In this document: piece by piece, positions 10,334 through 63,482 of the stretch
Numbering within the stretch: position 1 is the stretch's first letter
Layout of the letters: the number at the start of each line of letters is the position of its first letter
Assembly: GCF_028389875.1 (NCBI RefSeq)
Contig: NC_084702.1
Coordinates: forward strand, 69,103,582 to 69,167,581
DNA: 64,000 nt
DNA from: Rhea pennata
Taxonomy: Eukaryota > Chordata > Aves > Rheiformes > Rheidae
Reading direction: 5' to 3'
Translations under genes and position numbers: made by a program
The notes under the pieces: generated by a model
What the model was told of the DNA's origin: nothing
The model's input: the letters and a program-made list of their open reading frames with translations, nothing else
Databases searched by the model: none

Positions 10334-21969
<11,636 letters not shown>

Positions 21970-24753: not shown

Positions 24754-27700
24754 TTATCCTTCAATTCGGAAAAGCTTTTTTTGCTTTTTCCTTTGAATTT
24801 TGCGTGGCTTCCTTTTATCTTTTACGGTTGCCTTCATTTCTGGTTTCACAAGCTGCACTTCCATCAGCTTTTCTTCAGCTGGAGTCTCAAAGACAGTTTC
24901 AGTGGGATCTTCTTCAGTAAGTATCTTAGTTTCTTTTTTCTTAATCTTTTGTACTTCTTTCACTTGCTGTTTCTCTTTAAATCTAGCAGCCATTGATAAT
25001 CTTATCAACCGTCGATGCTATAAAAATAAGAAATTAAATTCAAGCAGGTGTTGAAAAAGTAAGATGGAAAAAACTCAGATACCAAAGAAACAGGTAGAGA
25101 TTTCTCTGCCTCAAACTCCTCAGTATAGTGTTATCTTTTTATTGATAGGAATTGAGTCCTTCCTATTTATGCATGGTTATTCTATTTTTAACTGTGATTA
25201 GTTAGGGCACTCCCTCCTACAAAGGATTCCATAGAAAGGAACACGTGGTCCTTTTGCATAAGGAGCTTGCAAGACTTCAAATGAACTGCTAAATGAAAGA
25301 AAGGACAAAGCTGCTTACCATATTTGGAGATTGGTAATAAGGATTTTCATATAGAGTTGGTCCTCCAAAGCTACCCTGGAATATTTTGATGAGATTTAGA
25401 ACAAAACGAGGCCCAATTTCCACTAGAGATGCATCCTCTTCTATGATCTGCAATAAAAAGAATGTTACTCTTTTTTCATGGATTGAATCTACATATATGA
25501 CCTTGTTGTCATATTACATACAGTGATCCATGACAGAATTCAAATCCAGCTCTAGTGCTGCTGAAACTGGTAAGCTAGACTTGTACAAATACAACTCTAT
25601 ATACAAAGCAGTTCCTTCAGGTATAAGCAAACAGCAAGTACTAGATACTTGTGAATTCCTCCTTTGGAAAATAAGAAGCCACACTTTGAGCCAAAGCACT
25701 AAATAAAAGTTAAAAGACAAGTGAAGTTTGGGCTTCACTTTGGCTACCATTTCCTATCATGAAGGCAACCTTTACGGAATCAGAATAACTGAAATTTCTT
25801 TGTGCGAGCACTGAACATCAGCATATCCTGAGAGCGATTCTTCTTAATTTATTGTAACTAATGGATTTGATATGAAGTCATTTCATAGCACCATCTGAAG
25901 AGCCAAAGAGGACCACTAACCTGGTAATTCCGAAACCAGATCCTCTTGTCTGTAATGGTGAATGTGAATACGTGATCTACAAAGGGCTGGCTCTTGGGAT
26001 GATACTGTGGTGTACTAAATATCTGTAATAAAAGGCAATCTTTTCTAAATATCTGTAATCATAAGAGGTCAATCATATACGTGGCTTATCTTTAATTCGT
26101 CTTAATTTATTAAGATCCAGATTCCAGGTTAAATAAATAACCTAAACACAAGCAGTCCCAGTGACCTTAAGCACAACATCCCCACAGGATTAGGTTCAAG
26201 TTCAGAAGTGTAAAATTACTACTTAAAAATCAATAAATATGTTGCCAAAGGCCATTTCCAAGAAGGAAGAAACACCAGACAAGAGAACTACAAACTAACC
26301 TGAATAAACAACTCCTTTAACAGGGCGTAGTGTGGCTCCTTGTCAAATGTCTATAAAAGAAAAATGTAATTTTATGTACAAAACAAAATGTAGTAGTACA
26401 GAAAATGAAAGCATAATCCATGAAACACAAAACCTATACATACTGGATCAAAAGACAAAAGGGGCCGTGAGCCCCTTAAGCAGTTTCCAGTCATCTTCAA
26501 TTCAGCCAGTGTGTGAACTACAATTATTAAAAATACCATTTTAGTATTTGGAAAAAAAAAACATACAGACAAGAAAATAAAAAGCCCAAATGATCTCAAC
26601 AACTTACTGTTCTGTACTAAGAATTTAGCTGATGGTCCCTGTGGTGTATTTGAAAGCCTACAGGGGAGAGGCAGAAAAAAAGAGGGGAAAAAAAAACGTT
26701 AATGGCAGATAGAAGGGTGTGCCAGAGTCGCACAGTACAGTCCAACCAATTACTTCTGTAATTTCAACCTCTTTTAAAAGCAATATTGAATTCTTTAACA
26801 TACTTCAGGTACAATTAATAGGCCTTAAATTGTAACACTCAACAGAAATGCATTGTATGTATACTTGTTTTTTAAATAAAATTATAAAATGTTTTGGGAA
26901 AAATCCAGTAAAACCATCATGCATTGTAAATTCACATTCCCTCTCTAAGTATGGGATTAGAACAGATTTAACTAAGCAATGCTATTTTATACATCTTCAC
27001 TATTACTCCAACAGACTTTAGTTAGAACAGAAGCATACCTAGTTACACACAGGAAGGTAAAATCCAAAACATTTACTTACCACATGTACAGATCCTGTTT
27101 CTTTTTGGCTTCAAAAAAGATGCATTTGTTGCAGTTTTTTATTTCACAGACCTATACAAAGCATGACAAATTAGCTATTTACAAAATTCTGAGGACATTT
27201 TCACAGACTTTCCACATTAATCTCTATGCCCTGCACCCCCGCAGCAAAGTAAAAGTTCAAAACCAAAAAGTCTCATCTTAATTGATTACATCTACTGATC
27301 TCCAAACTTCAGTTTAAAGACTTATTGAAAGATCTAAAGTTCCTATTACCAGTAGCAATAATTTCACTGAAGCTACAAGCAATCTGATGAGGTTTCCAGG
27401 ACATGAGTATCAGAGCAGAAGCTGTGACAATGGGTTGTTGTTTCAGCTCTACCAATGTCTTACTACATTATTTGGGCTGGTCACTTGTTTGTTCCTTGAT
27501 CTACCCAAACACAAATTATATCAAAAGTCAGCTTCCCATTTTAACCTAAACACTTCTTTAACATCAATCATTTTCACTTACGAAGTTGCACAACTCATAT
27601 AGCTAGTATTAATTCCTTTGAACTAGCTGTCCATTGGCTGCCCTTTCTGTTCTACACAGGATTACCACAGAAAAGAAAAAAAAAATAGTACTAGTTAAAT

Positions 27701-29368
27701 TCTGGATTACCTCATTTATTATAAATAACTTGTCTTTACGGTCCATTTTAGTATCTGGAAAACAAAAATAACATTGAGAATATTTGAAAACCAATTTAAC
27801 ACTTTTTTTTTTGAAGAAATCTGTTCTTTGCAAAAATTTACTGGCCATAAATGAAAGATTAACTATATCAAGCTGTTTTAGCCATGTGATGCAGAAAATA
27901 AGTATGTCAATATGCATATTTGGGTGCTTACAGAACAGAAGCCATAACAATCATTTTCCGGAGAACATTAGGCTATAACAACAGCAATAAGTTCTGTTGG
28001 CTCAGGGAGGGTGGTTTTTTGTTTAGGACACAAGGCATAGTTTTGTCAAAATAATTATGCACCATATAAAAAATAGCACCAAAAAACAAGCTGTTAAAAC
28101 AGCTGATTTAGAACTAATCTGAAAACATGACTAAGTCAGGAATGATGCTTAGTCCTACCTGCTTTGGAGTGAGGCATCAACGTTCTTAAGTCTTGCATTA
28201 AGTGCCTTGTTCTGAAATTAATTCCACGGGATGAGAATATAAGCACCCGCTCCTTGTTTTTCCATTTACCCTAGGAAAATGGCACAGAAGTTAAGCAGGC
28301 AGAGGAAATTCCTAGCCTCCGAACTGTTACAACACAGCCAAAATACATGTTTGAACAGTAATAACAGAAAAGCACAACAGAAACATTTGTTATTATTACC
28401 ACTACTACACTAGCACAGAACTGCCCACTTGGGGAAAGTGCTGACGTTCGTACAGAATACAGGAATATATGTTTTTATGGAATGACTCTTATCCATACCA
28501 CATCACTAATAGAACCTTTTGTGTAGAACAACTGGAGTTTAAGAAACCCATACGCAACACATATTCCCTAAACACTCTCCTCCCTTTCTACAAAAATGCC
28601 TGAGCTACAATCTCAAAATAAAACAACATAGCTTCTCTTACAGATAACCATGTAAAAAAGTCTCAGACTTGAACACACTGATTTTTTTCTTTTTAGCAAA
28701 TCGCAAGACAGTTATTGAGGCCATCTCATGACAGTTCTTAAATGAAACAGGTACAATATCCCTCATTTATAACACCACCACTTAGCTGACTAAAATACTT
28801 CCGAGATGAGTGCAGCACAACTTAAACAAAACAGAAAAATGCTCTTCCTATCACTGCAAAATATACCATCAGATGCTACTTTCACGTGTGCTACAGCTAC
28901 AAGAAGTTATGAGCACCTTCCCTCGCCTGGCAGGGCGGCGGCTTCCCCTCCCCGAGCACACGCACTTTGAGCCCCAGCATCTCCCTAGCAGGAGGAAGAG
29001 CAGCAAAACTCGGAATCCACCAGCAGCGAACGCCCGACGGAAGCGTTGCGCGCAGCAGCGCAGAGCCCAGCAGCACCGAGCCCGCGACAACGCCTCGCCC
29101 GCGCCCCCGCAGCCCCTCGCCGGGGCGCAGCGTGTCTCGGCGGCCGCCGCACGCCGACACACGGGACTTCTCGCGGAGCGCGCGGCCCCGCCCGCTCCGC
29201 CCTGCGACCGAGCAGTACCTGGGAGACCGGCGCTGGGATACGGTACTCCTCCGAGCCCGCCCCGTCCGGGCCCGCCTTGGGAGCTGGCTCGGAGGCGCTC
29301 GCGTCCCCCTTAGCTCGCTTCTTCGGCCGAGCAGCTGTCGCCCCACGCTTCCTCTTGGCCGCCGCCAT
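24754..29368 (-). CDS. BRIX1: Ribosome biogenesis protein BRX1 homolog (complete, 10 coding exons)
   Basis: Exons in transcript order: 29368-29219, 28270-28159, 27754-27711, 27151-27081, 26657-26608, 26517-26444, 26350-26300, 26022-25921, 25447-25319, 25017-24754 (TAA 24756-24754). They join to 348 aa; human is 353. A short basic N-terminal tail is followed by the Brix domain from about residue 51 (GKWKNKERVLIFSSRG, then MDRKDKLFIINE, HTLAELKMTGNC, GSRPLLSFD, IGPRFVLNLIKIFQGSFGG) and a lysine-rich C-terminal tail. The family binds pre-60S rRNA with Ebp2 in the nucleolus and is needed for large-subunit assembly. The ATG sits in a strong Kozak context (AAGATGG). It is divergent from RAD1 across a shared promoter. 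No frame damage is seen. Confidence 0.97.
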
Positions 29369-29830
29369 CTTGGCTGCACAGCCCCGCGTCGGAAGTCGCT
29401 TGCACTTCCGTCTGTTCGCACTTCCGCCCCCGCCGGAACGGCCCGTAGCCGCTCCGTGCGTCCTGGGCGCGCACTCTATGGTAGTGGCGGCCGGCAGCGC
29501 GCGCTTGCCGTCGGTGCTGCGGCCGTTGGGCGGCCGTTGGGCAGCACGAGGCGGCCGTTAGGCGGGCGGTTGCCGCGGGCCGCCTGCGCGCCTCCGGCCA
29601 TGCCGCTCTCCACGCAGCCGCCCGCCAGCGGCGAGCGCTACGTCCTGACGGCCAGCCTGGACAACGCGCGCAACCTCTCCAGCCTCCTGCGGGCCGTGCA
29701 CTTCCAGGACCACGCGACCTGCTTCGCCACGGCCAACGGCATCAGGGTGACGGTGGAGGACGCCAAGTGCCTGCAGGCCAACTCCTTCATCCAGGTGCGG
29801 CGCCGCGGGGCGGTGGCGAGGCTGCCGCTA
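28910..29830. promoter_or_regulatory. Bidirectional CpG-island promoter of BRIX1 and RAD1
   Basis: The BRIX1 ATG (29366-29368, minus) and RAD1 ATG (29600, plus) are 231 bp apart in CpG-dense DNA without a TATA box. ETS/GABP-type GGAAGT cores lie at 29390-29396, 29404-29410 and 29420-29426, the last two in opposite orientation to the first. GGCCGTT occurs three times, starting at 29521, 29532 and 29552. This arrangement fits known bidirectional housekeeping promoters; factor binding is inferred. Confidence 0.8.
29360..29371 (-). promoter_or_regulatory. BRIX1: YY1-type motif overlapping the BRIX1 start codon
   Basis: The minus strand reads CCAAGATGGCGGC across the start codon, an exact match to the known YY1 core AAGATGGCGGC. 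Such sites just downstream of transcription starts are known in many housekeeping genes. Because it is also the Kozak and Ala-Ala coding sequence, the match may be partly constrained by the protein. Confidence 0.6.
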
Positions 29831-32800
29831 GCCGCGATAAGAGGTTTCTTGCAGTCCCCACTGCCGGGCGTCCGCCCTCTCGCTGTTTTACATCAAGCTT
29901 CGTAGCGCTCACGCCGCTCTTACCCGCGCGGGTGAAAGACAGGTGTAGAGCACTGTTAGAAACCTTAGGAGGGCCCAGGCTACTTAACAGAGGAGGTGTG
30001 TGCAGGGAGTTCACCTGCGAAGAAGGGGAAACGTGAGCAAAACCGTGCAACAGCTGGAGCTGCTGACCCGAGGGCAGTGCTCCGGTTAGGCTGCCCTCAG
30101 TTGTGCTATGTCCCCGGAATGAACTCGATGCATGGCTCGTTAATGCCTGCTTACGCTTTGAGTTTGTATCCTCGTTTAATATGTTGGCACCTGAGAAGTC
30201 TGTTGTCCTTCTGACTGAATTGTTCTTAGGTTCATGAGCAGTTCACAACATATAAAGCCTACAACTCCAACAGCTGGAGCGTGTGTTTACTTGTGTCATT
30301 GCAACACTGGAGCAATGGCCTTCTCTTGCCTTCTGATTCTGCCTGTGTCTTTGGCCTAAAAGAATTTTTTTAGAGTTTACACATGGATGCAGTTTGAGTG
30401 TTGAGCTGTGAGGTGACTTCAGCACATCTGTGACATGCGCCCCTAACTAGTCTGAGAGGGATTAGACTACTCTGGGCTGTCTCCTGTTTGTCACTGGCAA
30501 AAGCATGTGCATACTCAGGAGGTATCAGCAGCTTTGTGGTAACTACAGGAAAAGAATATCACAAAAGAAGTGGAGGATGATTTCAGCTACTTTTGAAAAT
30601 CCGGTTACATACTTTTTATTATTCAAAACGTTTTCTCATGCTTTTTGCTGCAAAGCTCTTACTTAAGAATAAAAGTAAGTAAGTCACTTTGTTGTTGATA
30701 ATAGTTTTTTGGTTCAAATTGTGTGTTTGGAGGCAATGATTTTTTTGCTTTTACATTTCCAGCAAATGTTTTTTAAAAAACAAGGTTTGAGACGGTTTCT
30801 GCTTTCTTTTATGGTAGTTGTCATTAGTCCACTTACTGTTTTCACATGTGGGTTTCAAATTTGTATTTATTCTCTGAAAGTGAGTACCGAGTCTCTCAAC
30901 ATGGACCTGAAAATATTCAAAAATTAGTTTAATGTAATTGTTACAACAAATTAAGTCTGATCACTTACAGAATTTTGTTGAATCTGGACAAATGTGTCAT
31001 TTATGTCAGATATCTGAATGTTTCTCACTCCAGAAGTAGGTGGCTAGAGACTTTAACATTTGTGGCTGGTTTTTAAACTATAAACGATAAGTGCTTAGAT
31101 TTTCATGGTTATGACATGCTACTTCATTTAAAATGTGACCTGATTTTATTTTACTAATTTCTGTGGATTAAGACCTGCTGGTTTTTTAACAGAAATTGTG
31201 TTAAATATAGAAATCACTTTGTATTGCACTGATATCTGAAACTGAAAACTTTGAACTGAAATATAAGCTGTAAAATAATTACCAAAAATTTCCTCATCCC
31301 TTTTCTTCTTCTCATAGGCAGAAATTTTTCAAGAATATGCTGTTCAGGAGGAATCTGTGATGTTCCGGATCAATTTGGCTGTTCTTCTCGACTGCTTGAC
31401 CATTTTTGGTGCAAGTTCTTTGCCAGGTATGATGCATATTTAGCTTTATCATGCATATGCATCTCTTGTAACTGCATAGTGAAACCTGTGCTTAGCCATG
31501 CTTTGACAAAATTTGTGACTTTCACCATAAGTCCTTCTGGGAATGGCAGTTATCATTATTAAGCGGGATTCACACTGTTTGCTTAAGCTAACATAAGTGT
31601 ATGCTATAGTAACAGCAAATGGGCTGAAGAAGGGATGTGCTGGATCTTAACCTAGTCAGTGTGTCTGGGACCACTGCTGAAAGAGATGCCAGAGGAGGGT
31701 GACTCCCTTTGGATCTCTGTAAGGCACAGAAGGGCCACTCTATGTGGCTGCAACCCTTTTGTGGCATGAAGTACAAGCCCTCTCATACCCTTGCTCTGGT
31801 TTGGGGCTGAAGATCTCAAACAATTTCTATAACCTTGATAAGAAAACATGGGAAGTAATTTATCTGGGTGTCTCCAGCAAGTCACATGCTATGTTTAGGT
31901 TGTAATTCTGATGCCAGAGCCAGTACTGACCCCCAGGACTGTGTCTTTACTGTCAGTTTGGCCAATTGCTTCACTCCAGGACCCAGATCACCCACATCAC
32001 ATGAATCCTAGTTTGTTCCAGAGTGCCCTTCACTTAAAGGGAAAACCTGGGCAGAGCTGAACAAATAGTTCCTCTGCAGCCCACTCAAAATAGTCCAAAT
32101 GGCTCAAAAACATTAATAAGTGTATACTTGAAATAGGAAATATTCTAGGGCGGATAGATTTATTGGGGTTGAAGGAGTCTGCAGCCATTCCAGTTATCAT
32201 CATCTCTTCATTGTCTGTGCTCCTGGTGCAATAGCTGTTATGTAGCACACTTTATTCCTTCTTTCTTCAAGCTACAGCAGCATCTATTTTGTGAATATTA
32301 TCTCTAGCTTGCAAATAAGGAACTAAGGCATGTTACTTACCTAAAGCCTCTTAAGGAATTTATGGTTGAATTGGTGACCACTTCAAATGCCCTAAGCACA
32401 CCATCTCGTGTGAATAGAGGGTTTTACATTTTGCTGTGAGGCATATAAAGTATTTTGTCAAGTGTGTGAATTGCAAAAATCAAGTAGACTGTATTACTGG
32501 CTTTCAGTGATGAATGGAGGGAAATTCCTGTCATAATTATGTTTGCAATATTGAGTTACATTTGTTTAAAAATTGTTATTTGTTTAAAAAATGCAATTTT
32601 AGCTAGATTTTACTTCCTAAAAATTGAAGTCTTTTTAAAATTATTTTTTAACTTGATAATTGTTCATGAAATGATTTCTCATGCAAAGTAACTGGAATTC
32701 AATCTAAATGTATGAGTGCTATAGGATGCACTGTATACTTTTATGCAGCAGAATGAAACCATGCCAGTTTTCTAAGGCAGTTCTGTCGTTGCAGCTATGT

Positions 32801-35800
32801 GTTGAACTCCAGGTTTCTCTGTTGTTTCTGTTCTGGCTCTGACCTAAAGATAGACAATCAAATGTACTAAACTGCACCATAATTTGGAGGACCCAAACAT
32901 TCAGGTTATGTTTACATAGCAAAAGGAGGTTGGTACCATCGTGCAAGCTGTGGTATGCTAATTTTAGTTTGGACTGCACAGGTAACGAGAGTAGTAAAGA
33001 GTGACAATTTAAGACAGAGTGAGCCCTAGATCTATGGAGGTTTTACTGAATCTGCTAACCTGTTTGCAGCATATGCAGCATCATTGTCACAGCTGGAGTT
33101 ATCTGTTTGGTACATACCACTAGTTGGATTCAAACTAGTGCGTACATTCACATCATTTCATTTTGCTGCATAAACGTAACCCTTTGGAGGAGGGTGTATA
33201 GGAGGCTAGACTAACCATGCTGAATTAATGTATGAGAGGCCAGACCAGGCATTCTAAATGAATTCAATTTGTATGTCCTGTGCAGATAATATCTAAATTT
33301 CCTAAAGTGGTCAGATGTGCTAGCTAGCTCTCTGAAGAGTGTCTGCTTCATTCTCTTTTTCAGGAACATCAACAGCTCTTAGGATGTGTTACCGTGGTTA
33401 TGGCTATCCCTTGATGCTCTTCTTAGAAGAAGGAGGAGTGGTGACAGTATGCAAAATTAACACTCAAGAACCTGAGGAGTTGTTAGACTTTGATTTCTGC
33501 AGTACAAATGTTGTTAATAAAATTATCCTGCAGTCAGAGGGGCTACGAGAAGCATTTTCTGAACTGGATATGACCAGTGAAGTTCTGCAGATTACCATGT
33601 CCCCAGACAAGCCATACTTCAGGTAGGAGAAACTGTGCATTCAGCGTAAGTGTTCATACATGGCCTTTCTGCTCCTCTGTGAGTAAGGCCTGGAAGTTTT
33701 AGCATGTACTAAAGTGGGAAGCTGTTTTAGAACACAGTTTTATTTTAAGGAAAATTGTAATGAATATAATAAAGACATGTTATCTTATTAACATAATAAG
33801 GAATATATTGACCAGCTTGGTAATGTAGACAATTTAGTATTTTTAATTAAAGTAAAACAAACACAAATGTCCATTTAAATTTGTTTAGCTGTGTGTCTTA
33901 TATAGAAACAGATGAGACAACAGCATTTCTGGGTGGGACATATTGTGCAATCCAAAGAGCACATGTTTCTTGATAGCAGTTGCTGGTTTATATCTGCTGC
34001 AACACATGCAACCAAACTGCATGTAGTGACTTAAATCAGAGTATTGCAAAATAAGCAGAGAGGCAGAATGAACAACTGTGTATATGTGTGTTCTGCTCAT
34101 GGTGTTTTACTGTTTTTCCATCAAGACAGAGGTTCCCCAATGGATGATCCCTGATTCAGCCCATAACATTTCTTTCAAAGCAAATTTGAACTATTTTGGT
34201 AGACATATAGTAGCTTAATGTTGTGTGTCATGTTGCTCTGGCATCTCTAATCTAATAGTGGAACCTAGCAGACATACGCTATGGCCCAGTTATCATCCAA
34301 GACTACCATGATAATACGGCAGTGCATCACTTTGGAAGATAATGTAGCACACATCACTGAAGAGGATTGTGCAAAGCATCATATGTGGCAGCAAAAAAAT
34401 GTGCTTTTAGTTGGAAAAAAAAAATTCCTGATTGTCCTGAGACACCGTTTGAACCCCTAGTTATTGTTTATTTTCCATCCTATGAGTTTGTACCTTCAAT
34501 AGCCTCATCTTAAATATTTACTATATTCTGTAATGTCCTTCTTCATAACTTGAATCTTGTTTCAATGATTGATGTTAACTTTTGTTAGTGTTCAACCTCA
34601 TGCTGTTGGCAACTGAAAATTATGTGACTTGGAGATCTGTGGTCTTGGCCTCAGTAAGATTCAGCTTCCATTAGTTTGTTTTCTGTATACTTTACAGAGT
34701 CCGAGTTCATTAAGAATTCTTCTTCAGTGCTTTTGTTTGCAGAGAGTATCTCCCAGGTCTGGAATGATTTTGGGAACACTGACAACTATCTGAAATCATA
34801 AATTCAGTCAGTCGTCGTAGAAAATAAGTGAAATTTCTAGGATTTCCACATTTTTTTTTACTTTCATAGCTAATGCTGCAGAATGGGGACTTTTTTCACT
34901 TGCAGTATATATAAATAGAAACTAAAATATGCTACTGAAGACCAATAGCCAATCTTTCACTGAAGTAAATCAGCTTTGTATGAAACCATTGTCAGATGTC
35001 TTAAGAGAATCAGAGACTTTGGAGTGCTTCAGCCTTTTCCTAAATTATCCCATTCTGGCCTAATCCATATCTCCCATTTTGGGAGATACAAAACACTGTT
35101 TTTTGTAACTTGCTGAACGTTGTCTTGGTAAAAACAGTGTTTTGTAAAACAGCCATAGAGATATATAAGATGACCACTTCTGACAAGTTTTTGTAGAGCT
35201 GCTGTTAACTATTTTGAGATGACACCTTTTATTTTCCAGGTTATCCACTTTTGGAAATGCAGGAAGTGCACATCTTGACTATCCCAAGGACTCTGATTTG
35301 ATAGAAGCGTTCCATTGTAAGCAAACCCAGACAAACAGGTTAGTAACTGTGTGCTCACTGCACTCTGTGGCAGGTTATATTTTCTTGATGGACAGTTTAA
35401 AAACTGCTTTTGCATTAATGAAACATTTATTTCGTTAGTACAGAAATCCCATCTAATAAAATTGTGTGTCTATGATCAAAAGCTCAGTGGTAACAGTGTC
35501 TGTCTGGTGGTGTTACCAGGAGAAGATTAAAATATGGTATTACTACTGGGCTTTCCATAACTTTATGGTGTTAATTGGGAGTAGTGTTTCAGCTTGTCTC
35601 TTTGTAATTTTTAAATGACTTTTTTTCTCCCTTGCAGGTATAAGATTTCTTTGCTTAAACCATCTACAAAGGCATTAGCTCTATCTTGTAAAGTGTCCAT
35701 TCGAACAGATACTCGAGGATTTCTTTCTCTGCAATATATGATTAGGAATGAAGATGGGCAGATCTGTTTTGTAGAATACTATTGTTGCCCTGATGAGGAT

Positions 35801-35821
35801 GTTACTGAGGCAGCCCTGTAG
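29600..35821 (+). CDS. RAD1: Cell cycle checkpoint protein RAD1 (complete, five coding exons)
   Basis: Exons: 29600-29794, 31318-31426, 33364-33622, 35240-35338, 35638-35821 (TAG 35819-35821). They join to 281 aa; human is 282. Diagnostic segments are HFQDHATCFATANGI, VMFRINLAVLLDCLTIFG, YGYPLMLFLEEGGVVTVC, EAFSELDMTSEVLQITMSP and GQICFVEYYCCPDED. The protein is the RAD1 subunit of the RAD9-RAD1-HUS1 clamp, a PCNA-like ring loaded at damaged DNA to activate ATR signalling. The start is the first ATG of the CpG-island exon and matches the family N-terminus (MPLSTQ versus MPLLTQ in human). The N-terminal 20 residues are the least conserved. No frame damage is seen. Confidence 0.97.
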
Positions 35822-38512: not shown

Positions 38513-40582
38513 CTTGCTGAACAGCAGATGAGCTTCTTGTATCCTTCTGTCTGCTAGACAATGCTACTTATAAGAAACCTTGACAACCTACTCGCTGTAG
38601 TCCTCATAGGCATCTGCCTTACATTTCAAGTCTTTCAGCACAGTGTAGGCCTGCTAGAGAGAGAGAGGTGAAAAAATATGCAACATGGATCACTCATAAC
38701 TATATTAATTTTATTAATATATTAATTTTTAGGAGTATTCTTGAAGGTTTGATTGGTGCATGCTTAATGTATTCTTGAAACCCACAGCTAGACCTAAACA
38801 TGAGGAACTTTTAGCAAACTGCCTAACAAGCAGAATTCCAGACCGAGTTCCACTTTCCTTATACCATTGAAAATCTGAATGTGTGTGAGGCTGGACACCT
38901 GGGAAATAAACTGTTTGGCACCAAATATGCATGTGCAAAGCCAGCTGTACATAGGACATGTCCAGTGCTTTAACAATAAACTCATAAAGGATTATGAAGT
39001 ACAAAAGCAAGAATATTTATGTAGATGTATAAAATCTTATATACATATGTAAAATTGCTTGGAGTATGAACTTGTCCTACCAAAAATCTACGGGGAATGT
39101 TGCCTTCTCCTAAAAATATATTTGGCATCAATTCATATCCTTCAGCAAAATTAATTGTGACAACTGAAAATGCTGCCATTACATTGCCATTACATGTCTC
39201 TCCCTCCTCCCATGCTGGGCTTGGGTTGCTTGCACTGACCAGCTCTGAGCAGCTATTGGCAACATGCAGATCTGCAGCAAAATTTCTAGGCAAATATTTT
39301 TCTTACCTGATTTATTGCTAGTCAGACAAGCCAGTTACTGAATTCCTCAACGGTGCTAAGAATCTGGGAATTATCTGCACCCAACATCACTTGATACATA
39401 CTAAGGCTCTCTTTAAAGTACATTTCAGGAGGTTCTAGAAAATATATGTGGTAAGGACTTACAGCTGATTGCTTTTCTCTTTGAACAAGTCTTCTCCTCA
39501 CCTGTTCTGACTTTGTTATTACAATTAGGAGCAGTCTAACAGGAACAATGTATGCCACCAAGAACAACTGCACTTCTTGGAAATGAAAAGATGGATTTTT
39601 ATCTCCCAGAAAATTAGAAAGTTAAATTTTGCAGTCTCTATTGGTTCGGATGTATTTTTCTTTTTAAATGGCAGAACTGAACTTACCCCACTGCAGGCTG
39701 ACCAAAGTACATTTGGTAATGAAATCCAAGAAGCTTGGGGCTTTTGCAGTCTGTAAGGCAGCTCGGTGTTACCTCTGAGCATACTCTTTTCTTCTGTGTT
39801 CCTAATCTCCAAACTTCCCTATGCATTATTGCCTTCTGCAGCATTTTGCTCTACAAACCAAAGATCTCACGTTTTCTGCCCCAAACCCTCCACTACTCCC
39901 TGTTCAGCAGACATTCAGTGTGCTGCTGCTCCTCCCCAGCCACAGAATAAGCTCTGCCCAGCAGCAGCCCTGTGTGAGCAGGGAACAAGCACAAGGGTAT
40001 CTTCAGGGACAATGAAGTAACAGGAAATTCCAACTGTACTAACAAGCTTATCTTCTGCCATGTGATATTATCACCACTCAGTCTTGTCTTCTCTCAAGCC
40101 CTACCTCACTAAAGCAGGAAATGCATAAACAAGCCATTCTAGTTTTAAAAGTATATTCTCAGGGCTGGACCTATACTGAATATTTTCAAGCCAGTTTTCT
40201 AACCCCACTGGAATTTAGAGCTATTTATACTCAAGAACTTTGCTTTGTGGTACTTGAAAACTGAAGGCTATTTTTATCAATCTGAAGGTCAAGAAATTGG
40301 AGTTTCAAAGTATTTATTTCAGACTAGTCTAAATCTTCTAATATATTGATGCACCTGTGTTAATTACTTTAACATGGTTTAACTGTTTAATGTGATTATC
40401 AGGATCTTGCTTACCTGTAATAAATAACTTACTGCTCTATCATAGTTTTCTTTCAGTTGTTCAATTTGGGCAACTTCCACATATAGCTGTATCAGTTCAG
40501 GTGCTGTGCTTCCTTCTAACGAAATAACTGCTTTTTAAAGTAAAGCATAGCAGCTTCCAGCTTATTTGGTTGCAGACACATT
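38513..40582 (-). pseudogene. TTC23L: TTC23L (tetratricopeptide repeat 23-like) remnant, disabled
   Basis: Three minus-strand exons with good AG/GT borders align in order with human TTC23L. Exon 40582-40415 encodes LYVEVAQIEQLKENYDRA (human LYEEAAQIEQLRRNHNQA), but a one-base shortfall in an A run near 40530 breaks its frame. Exon 39434-39307 encodes EMYFKESLSMYQ and STVEEFSNWLV (human EIYFIRSISAYQ, TTIEEFCKWLV) and then has an in-frame TGA. Exon 38650-38513 encodes AYTVLKDL and EDYSE, followed by two in-frame stops. A weaker match, LLGRAYSVAGEEQQHTE, at 39967-39914 fits the exon expected between the first two. Upstream exons were not found. Position and strand agree with human synteny (RAD1-TTC23L-RAI14), so this is a decayed resident gene and not a retrocopy. 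Assembly error cannot explain all four lesions easily. Confidence 0.8.
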
Positions 40583-49041: not shown

Positions 49042-49047
49042 TTTATT
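49042..49047 (-). terminator. RAI14: Candidate RAI14 poly(A) signal
   Basis: Minus-strand AATAAA about 1.9 kb after the RAI14 stop codon; a long 3' UTR is usual for this gene. Confidence 0.6.
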
Positions 49048-50960: not shown

Positions 50961-53900
50961 TTACTTTTTCTGTGATTGGCTTTTACACATGGATAAAATT
51001 TGTTTAAGCACTTTCTGGACATCTTCATCCATTTGACCCTAAACAAGGGGAGAAAGAAGAAAGAATTAATTTCAAGAATTAAATTCAAGCATCTCTCTAC
51101 TCCTTAAGAAGATTTACAGACTATTTTCAAGGTATATTAAGTATATCAGTTTCCCAAGAGAAAGCTGCATTGAATTTGTGCTTAAATAGTCAGACTAACA
51201 AGGGAAGATCTTAATATCTGCAGAAGAAACATATTTCATTAAAATACCTACTTATTATCTGATAATACACAGTTATACCTGCACAGCATAGAGAAGATGC
51301 ATCCGGTAAACTGAGACAATCTCCTGGTGTTGTTTCTTTGTTTCCTGGAAAATAGTTTTAAGCAGAAAGTCATGGACATTCAGAACTATTCACTTCAAAA
51401 CACCACAACTAGATTTAGGGAGACCAAGGAAATTGCAAGGGATAGAACAATCTCTTATGCATACATGGAAAACCAGCTCAGAGACAGTACTGTGTTGCTG
51501 GTCATCCACAATGTAATTAGCTAGGAAGCATAATCCACAGAAATGCTGTAATTCTACCCATCCTAGTGAGCGAGATATTGAGCTGACATGGGCTATAGGA
51601 AGCACTGAGCTGCAAAGACGTGGAATGAACCCATACTCTATGCAATATTGGAAACCAAGTGAACAGGAGGTGCTTACAAAGGTCCTGATTCATAAAATCT
51701 CTGACTAGTTACTACACGTTCAAACAAGGAAAGGAGGCTTCCTCTCCTGCGATCTCAGACTGCCACATCCTGAAAGCCACCTCTGCACATAAACGTGAAG
51801 CTGTCTGGAAAGCCAGACGAACAAAAGGGAAGAACTGTACAGTCCTGTTGTAAATCCTACCCACTTTCCTAACATGTTGCATATCTTTGCATTTCACACT
51901 ACTTTGCTGGTCCCTGAGCAGTGGGAGATGAAAGCATCTTATGGACTTTGTGGACATAAGGAAAAAAAAAACATAGGCCTTTACACTGACAGGACCCAGT
52001 GTTTAACTGTCTACTTATTTGTTTCTTTCCCCTCACTGCAAAAGATTTTTTCTGGCCTATATGTCTATTAATTCATTTGTCTGTTGGAGGGGAGAGGAGG
52101 AAAGCAGACACCATGAAAGCCATTTGGCACTCTGGGCTGGGAATTTGCCTTTCAGGATAACTTGAGAGCTCTCAACAAAGGCTTCTGGCAGGAAATACCT
52201 CCTTTTCATTTTCTGCAGTGGATTAAAATGTTTCTTTGGACAGGTTGGCTCTTGGAAATAGCTATTACGATTTTGCCCAGCTTAAAAGACTGGGCCTTTT
52301 ATGTACAAACAGCTATGATCATAAAACACTAAGCAGTGTAAAAATTCAGAGAATAAACTGTGCTCCCTCCAAACAGATGGACCTGTTTCACTTGACATTT
52401 CATGCCTTCAGTGACTGTTTTCTTCCAAGAAGCCAAAATTATTTTTGCTTGAGAAACAAAAAACTTCAGCTGATGATTAAATCTACATGTTTCTGAGAAA
52501 AACACACAAATCCACAGTACACTGGCTATATCTTTCACAATTCAAGGTTTCAGCGGCAGGTCCGGCCACCACACTCCACTGTAAGTACATTAATTTGGTT
52601 CCACTATTGATCTCAGGGAATATATTGGGAACAGTAGCTTTCTATAGTTAGATTTAATTTCTTAACAACAATTCTGAAGTAACATATGGATTCCTTAAAA
52701 ATATTTCAGAGCACTATAAAACTTCTGGATAAAACTTCCTTTTCTTATACTCATTGACTTTGCTCAAGTTTAAACTGGGTACAGTTAGGAAAGCCCCACA
52801 CCTCTTGGAAGAACTGGGAATAACAGTGCGTTTATGTATTATCATACTTACAGTCAGTTGGTTTTGCAACTGCTTCACTTGTTGCTGTAATGCCTCTAGC
52901 TGCTGACTCTGTCGTTTGGGGGCGCTGGTCGAGTAGGAAAGCTGAGAAAGGCTATTCAGTGCTTCTTTTAACTTGCTAACTTCCTTGGACATCTCATTGA
53001 TCTAGGGAGGGGAAAAAACAGGTTCTCATGAAAAGCTGCAGGGCATACTGCAGCATTCTCGCAGGTGTCATCTAAGAGAAATCTGTGACTTATCTTTAAG
53101 AGAGACAACGGCCAACCAAGGACATTACGGAAGCAAAAGGTTATAGTGCTCCTCTCCCCCCTGCTGCAACCCACTGTTCACACAACAGTGCATGAGAGCA
53201 GTTTTGGCTCTGCAGTGCCTCCCCCAAACCTAGCAGACTAGTGTGACATTTCCCTCCAAGCAGCAGCTTACAGCTCTGGCTTCTCACAAGAACAAGGATG
53301 TCTGCAGGTAAGCGGCACCTCACACATACAAATGACATTCTCAGCCCAAAGACCCCTTGATCTCTCCCTTTCAGCACAGGTCCCTGCCACCTGCTTGATG
53401 CTCTACTCCTAGCCTCGTCATTCAACATGTATTCCAAGTTCTGAAAGCCAGCTATATTTATGAACAAGAATTGCATTTACTGACTTTACAGACACTGCTT
53501 CTGAACACAGGATAAACATACCAAACCCAGGTGAGCTATCCACAAGCAGAGGAATACACAGCTTCGTAAAAGAAATTTGTAGTGACTGACTTGGTAGTTA
53601 TAGAAGGAAAAGAGTCAAGTCATGCTGGTGTTAAGGTGCTTTATTAAACTCAGAATGGTGTATTTTTGCTCCTTTCTGATCCTTTATTTCTAGACATTTC
53701 CTTATGGATCTCTTCCTGCTGTAAATCCTACTTTGACTTCAGTTGCCTGAATACTGTGAACTCAACCTGAGCTGATTTTAAAAGAGGTAAATTGAAAAAG
53801 CATGTACATCTTCATGGGAGAGGAAAGCAAGCGTAAAGTCAAATATGTTCAATAAAAGCTTCTTTGGTTTTACGAACTGAAAGATAGAAGTGTGGCATTG

Positions 53901-56900
53901 GAATTGTTAGAGGGGCAAACTCAAAAGTTACTCCATTCTGTGGCACTTGACCCAGTATGGTGTTTTAGATCACCCATGTACTATCCAACATGTTTTGCAG
54001 TCTGAGCTCACATATGACCCCTCCTCTGCAGCAAAATACTAACCTTTTTATCTTTATCCTCTTCTAGTTTTGATGAACTTTCAGAATATCTTTTCATTTC
54101 AAGAAGATCTTCTTGAGCTTGATGATACTTTTGGTGAAGCCCAGTTACCTCCCGCTCCTTTGCTTCAAGCAGAGTGTGCATACCTTCCTTCTCTTCCTTT
54201 AAATGCAAAACTTCATTTCTCAGTTGTGTAACATCTAAGGACACATTTTCCTTCTCTTTGATTACATCTTTCAATTTGGATGACAAAATATTAACTTCAC
54301 CTTCTAATGAAGACTGGAGTTTTTCATAAGTAGACCTGGGTACCATTGCTTCATTAATTGCTGCTTTTTCTTCCAGTAATTCCTTCTGTAGGTTTCTTAC
54401 TTCACTTTCCTTATTGGTAAGCAGTCCTCTGAGCTCATTTACTTCTTCCTCCATTTCCTTTAAAGTACTTCTGAGTGCATTCATCACCTGATTGTGTTCA
54501 GTAATTGGCACAGAGTTTTGTTTCTGAGTGTCTATCAGTTGCTTTAATTCTTCTGCTTCATCTAATACTTTTGTGTACTGGGATTTCATTTCCGATAACT
54601 CATTCTCAGCTTTGTATTTCAAAGAATTTGTTATCTGCATCAGCTTTTCATGCTCATCTTTAGGAATGTAGTCCAAAGCTATATCATCTAGAGTTTTTCT
54701 CTTCCTATAATCTTCGAGCTCTGTTTGTGCTTCTTTGTACAACTGAGACAATTCACTAAGTTGTCTGTTGAGCTCATCTATCATTCTGCTCATTGCCTCT
54801 TGTCTTTCTCCAGCTTCAGCACTGGATTCCAGCTGAGTCTGATTTGTCAGCTTATCCTGCAGCCTTTTAATTTCCTCTTGCCCTTCTTTGTATCTCTCAA
54901 TCAACAATGCTTTCTCTTGGTTAATGTTGTCAATAACTGAACAATATGTATTCTTTATTTCCTCACGTTCTTCCAAAGACATTGGCACATTCTGCTCTCT
55001 CTCTTCAAACTTTTTCTGCAGCTGTCTTACTTTCTCTTTTTGTCTTTCATTTTCCTCCAATGCTCTCTTCAACTCGTGCTTAAGCATTTCAAATTCTTCG
55101 CATGTAACCTTCAACCTACTCAGGTCAGAACTGTTTTCTTCACTTTCAGAGGAAACAAGACCCAATTTCATTTGCCTTTGTACATTCAAAACCTCTTTCA
55201 CTGCTTCCCCATACCTGTTCTGAGTTTCTTGGAGCTTTAGGTTAAGATCAGAGCCATTTTCTGAAATGTCTGTGCTATTTAAATGATCTCTGTCTGGAAC
55301 TCTAGACTGGACCTGAACCTCTAAGTGCTTTCTTTTGGCTTCAGAATTTTCTAATTTTCTCTGCACATCCTTTAAGTCTTCCTGGAGGTGCTTTATTTTT
55401 ACTTCACTGGGGCTTGCTGGCTTTTCTTGAATTTGGGTGGCATTTAATGAAGACTTCAGTTCCTGAGCTGAGAACTCACTTTGTCTATCTGCTGTTTGAT
55501 CAAACTCTGTTTGGGTTGAATGAAAAGAATCTATAGTAGAATTGGCTTCTTTAGGTATTCTTTCCTGTGTAAAAATAAACCAAAACAACTGCATGATAAA
55601 AACAAATGTATGATTATATTTGTTACAAGAGAATAAGCAAGGAACTCTTGCTACGTTCTACAGAGATGAGCAATTAAAGCTCTATAGGATAAATTTTTAG
55701 AATACCTCAAAAACCAGCTGCTCCCATTTATCCATCTACAGTCAAAGAAAGCAGTAAGTGCCAAGCTCCTTTGAAAGTCTGGGCTGATCTCCATAAGGTA
55801 ATAATCAAAGCTATGCAAATTAAAATTTTACTAACACAACTGTTAACAACATATTTAAGAATGTGGTTATCATAATAAACAAAGATATTCGGTAATTCAT
55901 GGGAAAAGTGAAATCAAAACACTAATTTAGTCCTTTGGGGCAGTGTGTCCATGTTTTTCTTTTGTTTTGTTTTTTTTTTTGTAATGTTTTTTTTTTACTA
56001 AAACAAGCCCTTTAAATTATCTTCACAGCATATCTCTTTAAAATGGTAAGCACTACTCTGTTCTGCTAACAGGCTAACAGATCACCAGAACAGCACAAAA
56101 ATACACCACCTGTAATTTGTCCTGTAGCTCCTTGTTGTGTAATGTCAGAGAAGCGATTTTTGCTTGCATCAGCATAAGTAGATCTTGCTGGTCGGTGTCA
56201 GAACTTACATCCAATAAACTATCAGCACCTTGAGGGGGGAAAAACAAAAACTTTGTAAAGCTGAACTGATCCCACAGCTTGCTACATAGTGTGTCTTTTC
56301 AAATTAAGCCTTTTTTTCCATGACCACCTAGCACTGTGAACAGGAGAACTATTCTTAGACGTGTTTTCCCCCAAAACGCATTAACTTGCTCAGATAAACA
56401 GGAGGTTTAGGTGGAGACTTGAAACTGCAAAAAGTTACTCCTTATAGTTATCCCAAGTAGAAGGGCACAGCAGATTTCTGACCAGACTTCAATGCTTCAT
56501 ACCACCAAATTCAAAAATAAGGATCAAGATTATTGTTTACGTCACCTGTTGTGCTGTCGCTCAGTCTGTCTTTATTATTCAGGGGGCTGAATTCTTCCTG
56601 TTGGGACACCAGCAGACAACACATTCACAGAAAGCAGATATAAAATTGCACAGTTCACAACAGCAGGTATAGGGCCGGATGAAGCATGTGGCCAATACTT
56701 CAAAATCTGCTAACAGCATTCAGCTGGGCAGTTCTCATTAAATGTCAACAAAATTGGGGCAACTATCCCACAGACAGTTTGGAAAGCTGCCGTCTTGTGA
56801 TTAGAAAGTGCGATATATTGTAATTATTTAAAAAGGTGAAATCTTCAACACCATGAGGTAAAGATCAGACAGAACACACTCAACATTTTCTTGATGTCTT

Positions 56901-59900
56901 TTGGTGAAAGAGTCTCTACTTTTTGTATTGCACAATGCCACGTACTTCACTGGCATTAGGTAATGAGCTCCCGTTAATAAAATAACACTTACTTTCATAA
57001 TCATACTGCTAAGTACTAGCTTATGACTAATTCTACTACGTACTAACTGAACATAAATGTAATTTACAAAGCAAATGTGGATTATTTTGAAACAGGTTCC
57101 TTTTTTCTTTTTAATAGATTCCTTTCTAATCCTCAAAATTCAGCTAATTAATTCGCAGGAGATTCTGGACTCAGCAAATAAATTATTACGGTATTACACT
57201 TTCCTTCCCCAAGACTACTGTCAACTGTGATACCTTGCAGATTTGGTCAGCAAAGAAAGCCTGTCCTTTTCCAGTCATGGGAGTTGAAGCTGATGAACGT
57301 GGAGAGGACAAATCACTAAGCTGTAAAAGATTTTATATAAATGAGTATATGCATGCATACATGTGTGTAAATGTAACTATTGGTGACATGTGCCCACATA
57401 TATACTAAAAAGTACTTTCCCCTATGCTACAATAAGTCATAACTCTGGGTTAGTATCAAAGAGCAAGTCTAATTATTCAGGGTCTTCTGAGCCAGTAGTA
57501 CATACACAGTGTTGCTGTTATATGAGTAACATTTACATTAAATATATTTGTTAAGCTCCATTTTGATACTATATCTATTTGTGCATTTTATTTTATTATA
57601 TATTTCTACACATATGCACATACTGTGTATGTATATATGTATATTTAAAATACATATATTTACTTATGGAAGTCATCATAACCAGGAGACCTTCAACTTT
57701 CAATGGAAGAAGCATCCATATAGTAATTTATATAGCTGTATTTTAGATGATGCCATATTTCAAGTAATTTTCACTTTAACCAATGCATGTCTTTTTGGTG
57801 TCATCCCAATGTCAGAGAAAGCACTCATGATATAACAGGTGTAGAAGATAACAATGATAGGGCAAATCTAGGCTACATCATTCACATAATGCTCAAAATA
57901 CTTCTTACCCCCTAAAAGCATCTCAGAATTGGTCTTTTCTTTACCTGAACAGGACTGATAGGAGGAGGTGGGGCTTTGCGTTTTTTTGGAGTTCCACTTC
58001 TTTCTGAACTTAATTTAGAGCCTTGATCATGCTGAAAGTTTCACCAGCCAGAGAAGGTAGGTTTGTTAGTTTGGTTAGTAAAGTTTGAGTAAGTTGTTTT
58101 ATTAAAAATAAATAAATATATATATATATAAAAATCCCACATTAATATCAACTTTAGCAGCTCATGCAGTGCCCTTTTTTCTTTTTTTTTCTATCTAAAG
58201 ATTACATCTTGATTAAAACGGAGATATTAAACATGCCTGACAATAAGACTCTGTCCCTTGGAAAACATGCTTCAGTGAAAACAAACAAGATTTAGTGAAA
58301 AAGCACAAGCTGACAATAGGTTTAGCACTAGTGATCTTAAAATTCTTCCATTCACTCATAGCCCAGTCATGCCGTTCTTAGCAGTACTGTCCTTCCTCTC
58401 CCTCAGCTTCTGCTTGGTGTCTCTGAAAAACCCACCTCAACTCAGAGGAGGAGTGACTCAGAGCATTGCACCCTCATCCACTTTCCAGCCACCAGCAGGA
58501 CTACAAGACACCTGTGCTCCGAGATACCATGACACTAAATAAGACATGTAAGAAATGTATTTATCTGTTTAACTGCCTAAGCCTGCAGAAATTCTCCCAG
58601 ATGTGGGTCTCCAGTAAGAGGTAACCAAGGATGAAGTTCAGTTACCCCTTTTTGGAAACACAGAGACCTTTTCTTGATTTTCCTCTCTATACTTTGAGGT
58701 GACAGGGAGTCCTAGAGCCAAGCTCCTGCGGTTACACACAAGAAATGGGGCACCCCTTCCCTGCACGCGCGTGCACGTGCACATGCACACATAGACACGA
58801 CTTCTCCTCCCTTCCTTTTCTCGCAGTAGGGGTTGCTGTCACTGCTGACTATTACAGAGGGAAATTAAATTTAAAAGAAACTCATTTCTTAAATGAACAA
58901 CTAAAACCTTTCGCATTACAAAATACAGTTATTGGTAGCACATCTCGCTGTGGCACTCACTAGTGCTTGTATGCATGTCAATTACTAGTTTCTCAAAAAT
59001 TTAGAAGCCTATACAGCCTGAGTATTTTCAAACAAAAAGTCAAATACCTGTTTTGCTTTAGTCGGTGACTTTGTATCTGTAATGTAGAAAAGAAGTGGCA
59101 TTAAGAATGGCTATCAAGGAAAAAGTTATTTGCCATTCCTAACCAAACTCTCAGCTCTGCTTCCCACACCATAAATGCTTTGTTTGGTTTTTGAATTCGT
59201 GTTTGAAATCCAAGAAATATACATTAATTTTCACACCCCCTTTGAACTACATACTCTCTCTGCTTCTTTTTTTTGTTTGTTTCATATTGAGATAAAAGTC
59301 TAAGGATTGTGATATTTCTGCTTCTACTACAGTCTCTTACCATTCTTTCACATTAGGCTCCCACTTTGGAAACTCTTTTTAGCTTGACCATAAAGCCCTC
59401 TCTCTGCATTACTTCTTTCTCTAAACCACCAACTGAGGAGCTAAAATGTTCCGTTTATTCCTTCACTTAACAACAGAAAATCTATTCCAAATTGCACACA
59501 AGACTTCACCACACTACTGCATCAGTTTACCTTTTCTTTCTCCAAAATATCTCTTTATGCCTTCCGCAGCACTTCATCTCACACTAGTTTTTACCGCATA
59601 AGCTTTTTATGGTGGAGACTGCAATTTGCCGTTTTGGGACGGCACAGCCAGACCACCTTGAAGATGGCTTCTGAAATATTTTCAGGCTGCTTTAGGAAGT
59701 AAAATCGCTTATTGCTAAACATACAGCCAGGCAATTCAAAGTGACAAGCCGCAGATCAGCATCTCTTACATACCCGCTTCCTGAGAGATCTTTGATGACA
59801 GGAGATTCTGGATCCCTGTATTCTCGGAGAGCTTGGAGTAATGCAGGGCATTCTGTCCGAAGACATCTACTAAACTGACATCTGCACCTTTTCTAAGCAA

Positions 59901-62900
59901 GGCTTCCACGATGCTAAGGCTACCAGCTTCACAAGCCACCATCAAAGCAGTTCTGGACAAAACAAACACAGCGTAAAAATGTCAAGACTGTACTTTTTAA
60001 GCTGCAACTCTTTCTTTCAGGAAAAACCATGACAGTAACTGAGCAATGAAGTCCAAGATTTTATGAACACATATATTGACACATACCTGTAACTGTCATT
60101 TCTCACAACCACCTGCTCTGCCTCTTCTCCCCTTCCCTAAACTTCCCAGCTTGATCTTCTACAAAGACCTGTCATGCTTTGCACCCATCTCCAAATATCT
60201 CTAACAATGTGTTCCTGAACCCCAACGCAGTGCAGCTAGTCAGTGTCAGATCCTAGAATAACAGCAGCACACAGAAAGCACATGCTACGTTACCTGTCTT
60301 TTTTAAGTGACTTGCACAGATTATCAGAGACATACAGAATACTTACAAACAAACAGAAAAAAATACCTTTCAGGCATGCTCTAGCATCCCTTTGCTGCCT
60401 AGGCATGACAGTCTCATCTCCCCGAAACACGCCTAATAGGTTGGCCAAGTTCACCAGCAAACACATTCCTCAGCACAGTTATAAAACTGAAAGGCTACTA
60501 GATATTACAACAATCATTTTACTGATAAATAAAAACCACACTCTAAATGTGGCCTGTGGAAGTGGTGGCTGTTACACTGTTGTGCTAAAAAAGTAGTGTC
60601 AAGTGGTAACTTGGGTAACATTGCCAAAGTCCCGGGCATGGTTTCAGAAGACCAAAATAATTAGTGTTACCTGGACAAGACAGAAAGTTGGACATGCCAT
60701 TTTCAAACATTTCCCCAACTAAACCTTCTTTTTTTCTAATGAAAAGCATGAACAGTTGTGTGAATACAAGATGCAAGACTAATCTCCTTAGCAGAGGGAG
60801 AGTGGAAAAGGAAAATGGTATATTCCGTGCTATATCATTTTCTTAGCTGCCACACACAGCATTAAAAAGAAAAAATCCAACTACTGGCATATCTGTGACA
60901 GAAATACTTTCATCCAATCAAGTAACAAAATCTCAACATTGTTGATTAAATGCTAATTAGTGAGAGGAAGGAAGAGGTCCTGGAGTGGTCAGCACCTCAA
61001 GTCCAAAGCACTGATGAGGCAGTTCAAACCAACCAAGGGAATAAAGCGGTTTTCTTTAGAAAGCTTAAATGAGAGACAACTCTAATACAACTTCGGACTG
61101 ATATAAACAAAGTTAAGGCTCAGCCTTATCGTAGGTGTTGCCACAGAACAATATGGACATTGTATCTTACATAATAATACAGACTGCAATCAGGTATAAG
61201 AGCCAAGTCATCTCAGTGACTTTACTTCTGCAGTTTCAATAACTGTTTATAAAAATTCAAAATTTTCAAATGACTTTAGTCATTATCACCATTATCAACA
61301 CAAGTGCATTTTTCACCATAGGATGTTCCAGTCTGAACATAATACTCTAATGTGTGAGGTATCTATTAAGGCAACAAATCTCTAAATGGCACCTCTCTTA
61401 TAAGGCAGCATCTCCAATATCAAAGTTTCACTGTATTTTCCCCTGCTGCTATCTTGCATCTGTGGCAGCATTATAGTAGAGAAAAGAGCCCCCATGGACG
61501 TCACTTGCAAGTAACATAGTTTTAGGATTTAAGTTGGAGAAACTATCTCATGCTGAAAACAGAGTAGTATTTAAAACTGGAACATTTACAAAACAATGAG
61601 CGCGTAAGTGCTATCAATCAGATTCTTGAAGAAAGGTTTTCCAAATGGCATTTACACCACTCTGGTAGCCCAAGGACTTTCTTATAGTCACAGGTAGTTT
61701 TGTAGTTACCTAGTTTCCACTTCACATTTCCCTTTAGCCAGAATTCTGTAAGGCTTCTCAACAATCAGGGTATGCTCTCTGATACAAGAGGCATTAATAC
61801 ACATAATAGTGATTTTGGGAAGGATTCAGGAAGAAAGCTTCATCTGAGAGTCAACCTTAGGACAGAATTAACATGGTAATGTTAGTTTGCTGTACCTTCC
61901 GTTTTTGTCCCTAGTGTTGATGTCTGCTCCGTGATCCACAAGGTATTTGCAGACTTCCGTGTGACCATTTTGTACTGCAAGCAGCAGAGGTATGTTCCCA
62001 TCCTAGGAACACATTTAGAGCAACTATGAACTATAATCCATCCACTTTACAAGTATCACTTCAACAGTTAAAACTTCAGCTGTGAACTTTCCCTCTACAC
62101 AGCACAAGCAAGGCACTATCAGTGTATTTTCTTTGGGCAGCAAAAATGTAGTTGGGCTTACTTTAACTTACTGCTTGAATGCTAAGGATGATATCAAACA
62201 GCAAAGCATGTGGAATAGGAATGCCTTTTGCTCTCTGCAATCCTTTTGCTATTTGCTTAATGCTATAAAATGATGATTTTGAAACTGTGCAATACCTTTG
62301 AACAGCTTCACAACAAAACGAAGAATTTTAACGAGGCATAAGGCAAAAATACATTTCATAGAACCATAGAATAACTTCAGTTGGAAGATATCTTTAGAGG
62401 TCATCTAGGATGTGTCCTCCACTGCCATCAACCCAAAGCAAGGTAAACTTCAAGTTAGTTTAGCTTGTTCAGAGACTTGTTCAGTCAAGTTTTAAGCATC
62501 TCCAAGGACAGAGATACCACAGCCTCTTCAGGTCCTAGTTCCAATGTTTGACCACTTTCATGGTGAGAAGTTTTCTTCCCTAAAGCTGAACGGGAATTTC
62601 CCAATTTGGTCCAATGCCTAACTTGCAGCTGTTGCTTGTCATCCTTTTGCTGTGCACTTCAAAAAGGGGTTTTGCTCCATCTTCCCTATAACCTCTCATG
62701 ATGTATCTCAGCACAGCTATAAGAAACTCCTATAGCATTCGTTCAGTCTTGAGAAGGTTATCTCCCTTTAAAATGTTTCTGCTAAAAAATTTTAGAGCTA
62801 AACTTTGTGACTGATCCTTTAACAGAAAGGCCAGGTAGGAAGGTGATAGTCCAGAATCAAAAAACCCAAAGACATCCAAAACAAGTTGAATGTTTTTAAG

Positions 62901-63482
62901 CTCAGTATTTTGTCTGAATTCTATCAGGCTCCCTCCCGTTATCACCTGAGAGCAACTGCGTATTTCCCAAAGACCTGGTTGTTTGTAGACACTCAAAATA
63001 CTCAATGTAATGACTCTGACCCTTTAGGCTACACCAGCTTTACTTTTTTTCCCTTAGGTCTATCAAATTCTGGCCGAGCTTAATCAGCATTTCACAGAAC
63101 TTGGCCATATAATGGGCCTTCTCCAAAGCCAGTGAATGTAAGATAGGTTTTGAATATATCAGAATGGATTCTAGTTACTTGCACCAATCCCTCAATTTAA
63201 TGGGTAGCGTATCCTACCTTTACTGTATTAGAGGGTGAGGTGCTTTTCCACCTCTGCTACGGCAAGGCACAAAAGGAAACTTTTTCTGGCAGAAAAATCC
63301 AAAATAAAATGTAAGAGGAGTACTGCTTTGAAGGGCTGCACCTGAGACTGACTGGAGGAGGGGGAAGGGGTAAAATCTACTTTGAATTGCAACGGGATAA
63401 GATGTACGTACCAAGTCTTTGATGTTAATTGGACATTTGTGTTCACATAGAAGTTGAACTACCTGAAGACAACCACATGCAG
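50961..63482 (-). CDS. RAI14: Ankycorbin, retinoic acid-induced protein 14 (3' part, 12 coding exons)
   Basis: Exons in transcript order: 63482-63412, 62002-61896, 59952-59774, 59076-59048, 58031-57945, 57320-57234, 56597-56546, 56228-56110, 55564-54044, 53001-52852, 51344-51279, 51038-50961 (TAA 50963-50961). Phases join without a break to about 848 residues, matching human residues from roughly 135 to the C-terminus at 980. The first three exons encode the later ankyrin repeats ([53 protein letters not shown]). Then comes a Ser/Pro-rich linker with [12 protein letters not shown], and a long coiled coil, most of it in one 1,521-base exon. The end is [15 protein letters not shown] then SQSQKK. 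The protein associates with cortical actin and cell junctions, notably in Sertoli cells and epithelia. The first exons lie right of the window. No lesions are seen. Confidence 0.97.
57585..57662. repeat. TA-rich low-complexity stretch in a RAI14 intron
   Basis: Mostly TATATA, TATGTA and CACATA steps; no coding signal. Confidence 0.6.
58104..58134. repeat. (AAAT)n/(TA)n microsatellite in a RAI14 intron
   Basis: Short AAATAAAT run followed by alternating TA. Confidence 0.8.
62353..62725 (-). mobile_element. CR1 LINE, 3' fragment
   Basis: The left end, CATAGAACCATAGAATAA, is the reverse complement of a CR1 3' tail. It is followed by sequence typical of avian CR1 3' ends in reverse: GGTCATCTAG, CATCTCCAAGGACAGAGA, CCACAGCCTCTTCAGG, GTGCACTTCAAAAAGG and GCTCCATCTTCCCTATAACC. 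It is 5'-truncated with no reverse transcriptase left, and moderately diverged. It lies in a RAI14 intron, in the same orientation as the gene. Confidence 0.85.

What the first reader, a model, noticed from the sequence alone, without database searches (positions are those of the whole stretch)
38513..40582. TTC23L appears to be a unitary pseudogene in this bird
Three exons in the right order, strand and syntenic slot match TTC23L, but together they carry a frameshift near 40530, an in-frame TGA soon after the NWLV motif (about 39327-39329), and two stops in the 38650-38513 exon. The neighbouring genes show no lesions, so the damage is specific. TTC23L is a TPR protein; its paralogue TTC23 works with the Evc-Iqce complex at the primary cilium, so its loss would be of interest. 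Seen: exons and lesions. Known: synteny in human. Inferred: loss of function in this lineage.
Basis: partly seen in the sequence, partly recalled or inferred. Interest (0 to 1): 0.7.

Follow-up and report, generated by a model that had tools for sequence, protein, structure and literature searches.

The report
Dead TTC23L gene in a bird
In this bird the TTC23L gene, whose sister gene TTC23 acts at the primary cilium, is a broken relic with no working copy found elsewhere in the genome, and TTC23 itself also appears to be gone.

Summary
Three TTC23L exons lie on the minus strand between RAD1 and a RAI14-like gene (40582-40413, 39434-39306, 38653-38513). Each outscores 300 of 300 shuffles, with recalled human TTC23L and with recalled TTC23 as probe. 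Splice dinucleotides are kept. The frame is broken: a frameshift near 40536, TGA at 39324-39322, TAG at 38590-38588 and 38566-38564. N-terminal exons are not detectable. RAD1 and BRIX1 look clean.

The 1.27-Gb genome could be searched: recalled TTC23L matches only this locus (2 of 2 matches at E <= 10), which supports 'unitary'. New here: recalled TTC23 matches nothing in the genome. Its slot between LRRC28 and a SYNM-like gene holds only a 12-residue trace that ends at a stop. The same method finds EVC at 46-57% identity, seven exon matches, so low sensitivity is an unlikely cause.

Best reading: a unitary pseudogene, and probably loss of both TTC23 paralogues with EVC kept. The kind of event is known in birds; I found no report of this one.

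The parts
40413..40582 (-). TTC23L exon A (170 nt), acceptor TTTTCCAG, donor GTAAGC; frame broken inside
   Evidence: tblastn E 6.7e-7; 0 of 300 shuffles; splice sites
40527..40536 (-). Frameshift in exon A: a 1-nt deletion plus three missing codons against recalled TTC23L
   Evidence: frameshift-tolerant alignment; frames
39926..40015 (-). Possible remnant of the exon between A and B (tentative)
   Evidence: 1 of 198 shuffles with TTC23L, but 44 of 189 with TTC23
39306..39434 (-). TTC23L exon B, acceptor TTTTCTAG, donor GTAAGA
   Evidence: tblastn E 2.5e-8 for a piece that includes it; 0 of 300 shuffles for 39306-39437; sequence
39322..39324 (-). In-frame TGA after NWLV
38513..38653 (-). TTC23L exon C, acceptor TCTCTAG, donor GTAATT
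   Evidence: tblastn E 0.037; 0 of 300 shuffles with TTC23L and with TTC23
38588..38590 (-). In-frame TAG
38564..38566 (-). Second TAG in the same frame
   Evidence: instead places two small frameshifts around it
29600..35812 (+). RAD1, neighbour, five pieces without stops
   Evidence: recalled human probe
24772..29368 (-). BRIX1, neighbour, eight pieces
   Evidence: recalled human probe
52717..63522 (-). RAI14-like gene: coiled-coil and ankyrin exons (name recalled)
   Evidence: Ank E 7.8e-9 at 59769-59981

Best explanation
TTC23L is a unitary pseudogene in this bird. The ancestral gene still sits in its slot between RAD1 and RAI14, but what is left carries a frameshift and three in-frame stops, its 5' half is undetectable, and no other copy was found. 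Shown here: lesions, synteny, single occurrence at the sensitivity used. Inferred: no TTC23L protein is made; constraint was lifted in this lineage and lesions then piled up. The paralogue TTC23 is probably lost as well while EVC is present, so any EvC-zone function in this bird would have to run without TTC23 proteins (inference). The age is poorly bounded.
For: Three exons above all shuffles with two probes; four lesions; closer to TTC23L than TTC23; no N-terminal or last exon above chance; RAD1 and BRIX1 clean; genome-wide only 2 matches at E <= 10, both here; the locus DNA occurs once.
Against: Splice dinucleotides of all three exons are still consensus. Probes were recalled, not taken from a database, and were typed after I had read part of the window; the C-terminal part of TTC23L is least certain, so exon C leans on the TTC23 test. 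No reads, RNA or other birds could be examined.
Confidence: 0.88

Rival explanations
1. Assembly or consensus errors create the lesions and the gene is intact.
For: Raw reads were not available; a short deletion near a run of A is a possible error site.
Against: Lesions of different types lie in three exons, the alignment lacks three further codons at the frameshift, N-terminal exons are undetectable, and RAD1 and BRIX1 in the same window are clean.
Confidence: 0.03
2. A shortened or re-spliced TTC23L is still made from part of the locus, or the locus is kept as a non-coding transcript.
For: Consensus splice dinucleotides at all three exons; exons A and B each hold a sizeable open stretch.
Against: The lesions are in the three exons that can be recognised, and the 5' half that would begin the protein was not found here or in the genome.
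Confidence: 0.06
3. An intact TTC23L (or TTC23) exists but is missing from the assembly or too diverged for the probes.
For: itself warns that an empty answer without a known positive shows little; some bird genes are missing from assemblies; only the best candidates are scored.
Against: The search finds the decayed TTC23L exons at 35-42% identity and EVC exons at 46-57%; the TTC23 slot is fetched without any N.
Confidence: 0.08

Closest known systems
STK33 unitary pseudogene of neognath birds (PMC4509753; abstract seen)
   Same: Unitary pseudogene in birds: remnants in the syntenic slot, missing exons, indels and premature stops
   Different: Another gene; there 28 neognath species were compared, here one genome
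Loss of WDR93 and CFAP46 in birds (PMC10445033; abstract and section 3.2 seen)
   Same: Ciliary genes lost in birds, partly as decayed exons in the slot, with a second gene of the same structure lost too
   Different: Motile-cilium central-apparatus genes, dated across many species and checked with long reads and RNA
Missing avian gene clusters (PMC4290089; listing and term counts)
   Same: Avian gene absence judged by synteny
   Different: TTC23, LRRC28, SYNM, EVC and STK33 have 0 occurrences in its main text; supplements not read

Membership tests
Unitary pseudogene | Remnant in the ancestral syntenic slot with introns, not a retrocopy | tested here: met
   RAD1 and BRIX1 on one side, RAI14-like gene on the other; three separate exons with splice sites. 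Human order recalled.
Unitary pseudogene | Disabling mutations | tested here: met
   Frameshift, TGA, two TAG
Unitary pseudogene | No functional copy elsewhere in the genome | tested here: met
   2 of 2 genome matches at E <= 10 are this locus; within the limits of one recalled probe and of the assembly
Unitary pseudogene | Intact orthologue in relatives | not testable with these tools
   No other vertebrate genome held; human orthologue known by recall
Unitary pseudogene | No transcript with an open frame | not testable with these tools
   No RNA data
TTC23L rather than TTC23 | Closer to TTC23L | tested here: met
   phmmer E 2e-7 and 2.5e-7 with TTC23L, 0.22 and 2.2 with TTC23; scores 97/96/62 against 49/51/37

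The most novel reading that the evidence does not exclude
This bird, and probably a larger bird clade, has lost the complete TTC23 family (TTC23 and TTC23L) while keeping EVC. Either the EvC zone was rebuilt to run without TTC23 proteins, or they were never essential to it in birds.
Probability: 0.6. Interest if true: 0.6.

Novelty: new member of a known kind. Interest (0 to 1): 0.45.

Why it matters
TTC23 is named as a functionally validated ciliogenesis factor from a Hedgehog screen (one passage of PMC7864206); its tie to EVC and IQCE is recalled. A bird without either paralogue but with EVC would be a natural knockout that shows which part of the module can be done without. No report was found: of 23 papers that hold TTC23L, none is about birds by title and abstract start; TTC23L with birds gave 1 unrelated paper, TTC23 with gene loss 0, TTC23 with avian 2 unrelated ones.

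Tried and rejected
Pfam gave no family for the three exons and the PDB no convincing hit (best E 0.25); recalled TTC23 has no PDB relative at E <= 0.001. An in-frame stretch upstream of exon B (39438-39572), suggested by tblastn, is not above chance (103 and 76 of 300 shuffles) and was dropped; note that the good E-values of exon B are for pieces that include it. A match at 43360-43319 like the N-terminal core is not above chance (55 of 200; 19 of 200 with the core alone). Other N-terminal tests: 67 of 200, 104, 24 and 125 of 200. Last exon: 114 and 107 of 200. Genome contigs: 65 pattern matches, 0 relatives. A retrocopy is rejected because introns are present. The dating uses recalled substitution rates and an assumed indel rate; ages were capped at 200 Myr.

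Full report
What is there. The window is contig C61:69103582-69167581 of a 1.269-Gb assembly in 180 contigs. On the minus strand three exons with consensus splice dinucleotides read in order as parts of a TTC23-family protein. Each exon outscores 300 of 300 dinucleotide shuffles, and does so also with the paralogue TTC23, which guards against a faulty memory of TTC23L. TTC23L fits better than TTC23.

The damage. In exon A the frame changes near 40536; the alignment to recalled TTC23L also lacks three codons there, so a deletion of about 10 nt is possible as well as a single-base loss. Exon B has TGA at 39324-39322, directly after NWLV. Exon C has TAG at 38590-38588 and 38566-38564; instead places two small frameshifts around the second, and either way the frame is broken. 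A middle exon may survive at 40015-39926 (1 of 198 shuffles with TTC23L, but 44 of 189 with TTC23). The 5' half of the gene was not found above chance in 40600-52700, nor the last exon in 35900-38510.

Specificity. RAD1: five pieces, no stops. BRIX1: eight pieces, two with stops in stretches that read as intron. Of eight open frames from neighbouring genes given to Pfam, one is an aminotransferase exon (AGXT2 by position) and two hold ankyrin repeats (RAI14 by position), one of these only weakly (E 0.0052); two others had only weak, uninformative matches and three had none. These frames were chosen as open, so they do not test for lesions.

Is it unitary? Recalled TTC23L against the whole genome gives two matches at E <= 10, both at this locus: 69142903-69143166 (E 0.0037, 35%, one TGA) and 69143978-69144112 (E 0.0087, 42%). 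Exon C was not returned. The DNA of the 2.3-kb locus matches once, itself. So the search sees exons this decayed, and an intact copy should have scored better.

The sister gene. Recalled human TTC23 gave no match at E <= 10 (3 candidates scored; the tool warns that an empty answer alone shows nothing). I therefore looked for its slot. LRRC28 gives seven matches at 61-91% on C10:4560456-4610083, two of them reported with a stop inside that I did not examine. In the recalled human order TTC23 and then SYNM should follow. I fetched C10:4609500-4688099, which holds no N. An intermediate-filament gene lies near 4.660 Mb (Filament, E 3.8e-15); I take it for SYNM by position. The TTC23 trace near LRRC28, on the expected strand, is LSLQAKQHVEKA at 4613470, 11 of 12 identical, followed at once by a stop. 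In 44.7 kb of slot (4610300-4655000, an end I chose) it beats 60 of 60 shuffles in score (26.2 against at most 23.5 bits) and in identity over 12 columns (11 against at most 8). Against this: in the whole fetch two other hits of 26.9 bits, one on each strand at 4656338-4658505, lie beyond that end, so the trace is suggestive, not proof.

Sensitivity control. A recalled EVC fragment gave seven matches at 46-57% identity on C4, best E 3.3e-14. Three of the seven were reported with stops inside. In the four loci I read, two of seven aligned pieces carry one stop each, at columns 2 and 11, where the sequence looks like intron overhang by eye. So EVC is present; that it is intact is likely but not proved. 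An intact TTC23 of similar conservation should have been found. EVC2 did not complete; IQCE was not tried.

How it most likely works. It does not: the gene is dead and its sister probably is too. Relaxed constraint followed by accumulating lesions and exon loss is inferred. Three stops and one to three frameshifts in 144 codons give most likely ages of 23-87 Myr, with support intervals from 8 to the 200-Myr cap, under recalled rates and an assumed indel rate. Related species may therefore share the loss; I could not test that.

Comparison with what is known. Avian unitary pseudogenes are known: STK33 in neognaths (PMC4509753, abstract) and the ciliary genes WDR93 and CFAP46 (PMC10445033, abstract and section 3.2). 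TTC23L is in 23 papers of the library, none about birds by title and abstract start; TTC23L with birds gave one unrelated paper, TTC23 with gene loss none, TTC23 with avian two unrelated ones. The library holds open-licence papers only and no supplements were read, so the loss may be listed elsewhere. The tie of TTC23 to EVC and IQCE is recalled; no paper held has all three names. One passage names TTC23 as a validated ciliogenesis factor, and one table puts TTC23L in a microtubule-organizing-centre gene set.

Verdict. A real pseudogene, read correctly by the first stage apart from a 5-base slip. The kind is known; the probable loss of both paralogues with EVC present is what deserves a second look.

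Noticed in passing
L014 (G000:C10:4609500-4619499), trace at C10:4613470 (+): The slot of TTC23 between LRRC28 and a SYNM-like gene holds only a 12-residue TTC23 trace ending at a stop; TTC23 is not found elsewhere in the genome.
   Followed up: yes
G000:C4:13721574-13752827 (-), L022-L025: EVC is present with seven exon matches at 46-57% identity to a recalled human fragment.
   Followed up: partly
window 21915-23335: A very G+C-rich repetitive stretch with long spurious open frames on both strands, next to the first exon of a DNAJC21-like gene.
   Followed up: no
window 42001-46000: A G+C-rich stretch (50-58%) upstream of exon A, possibly the former TTC23L promoter region.
   Followed up: no
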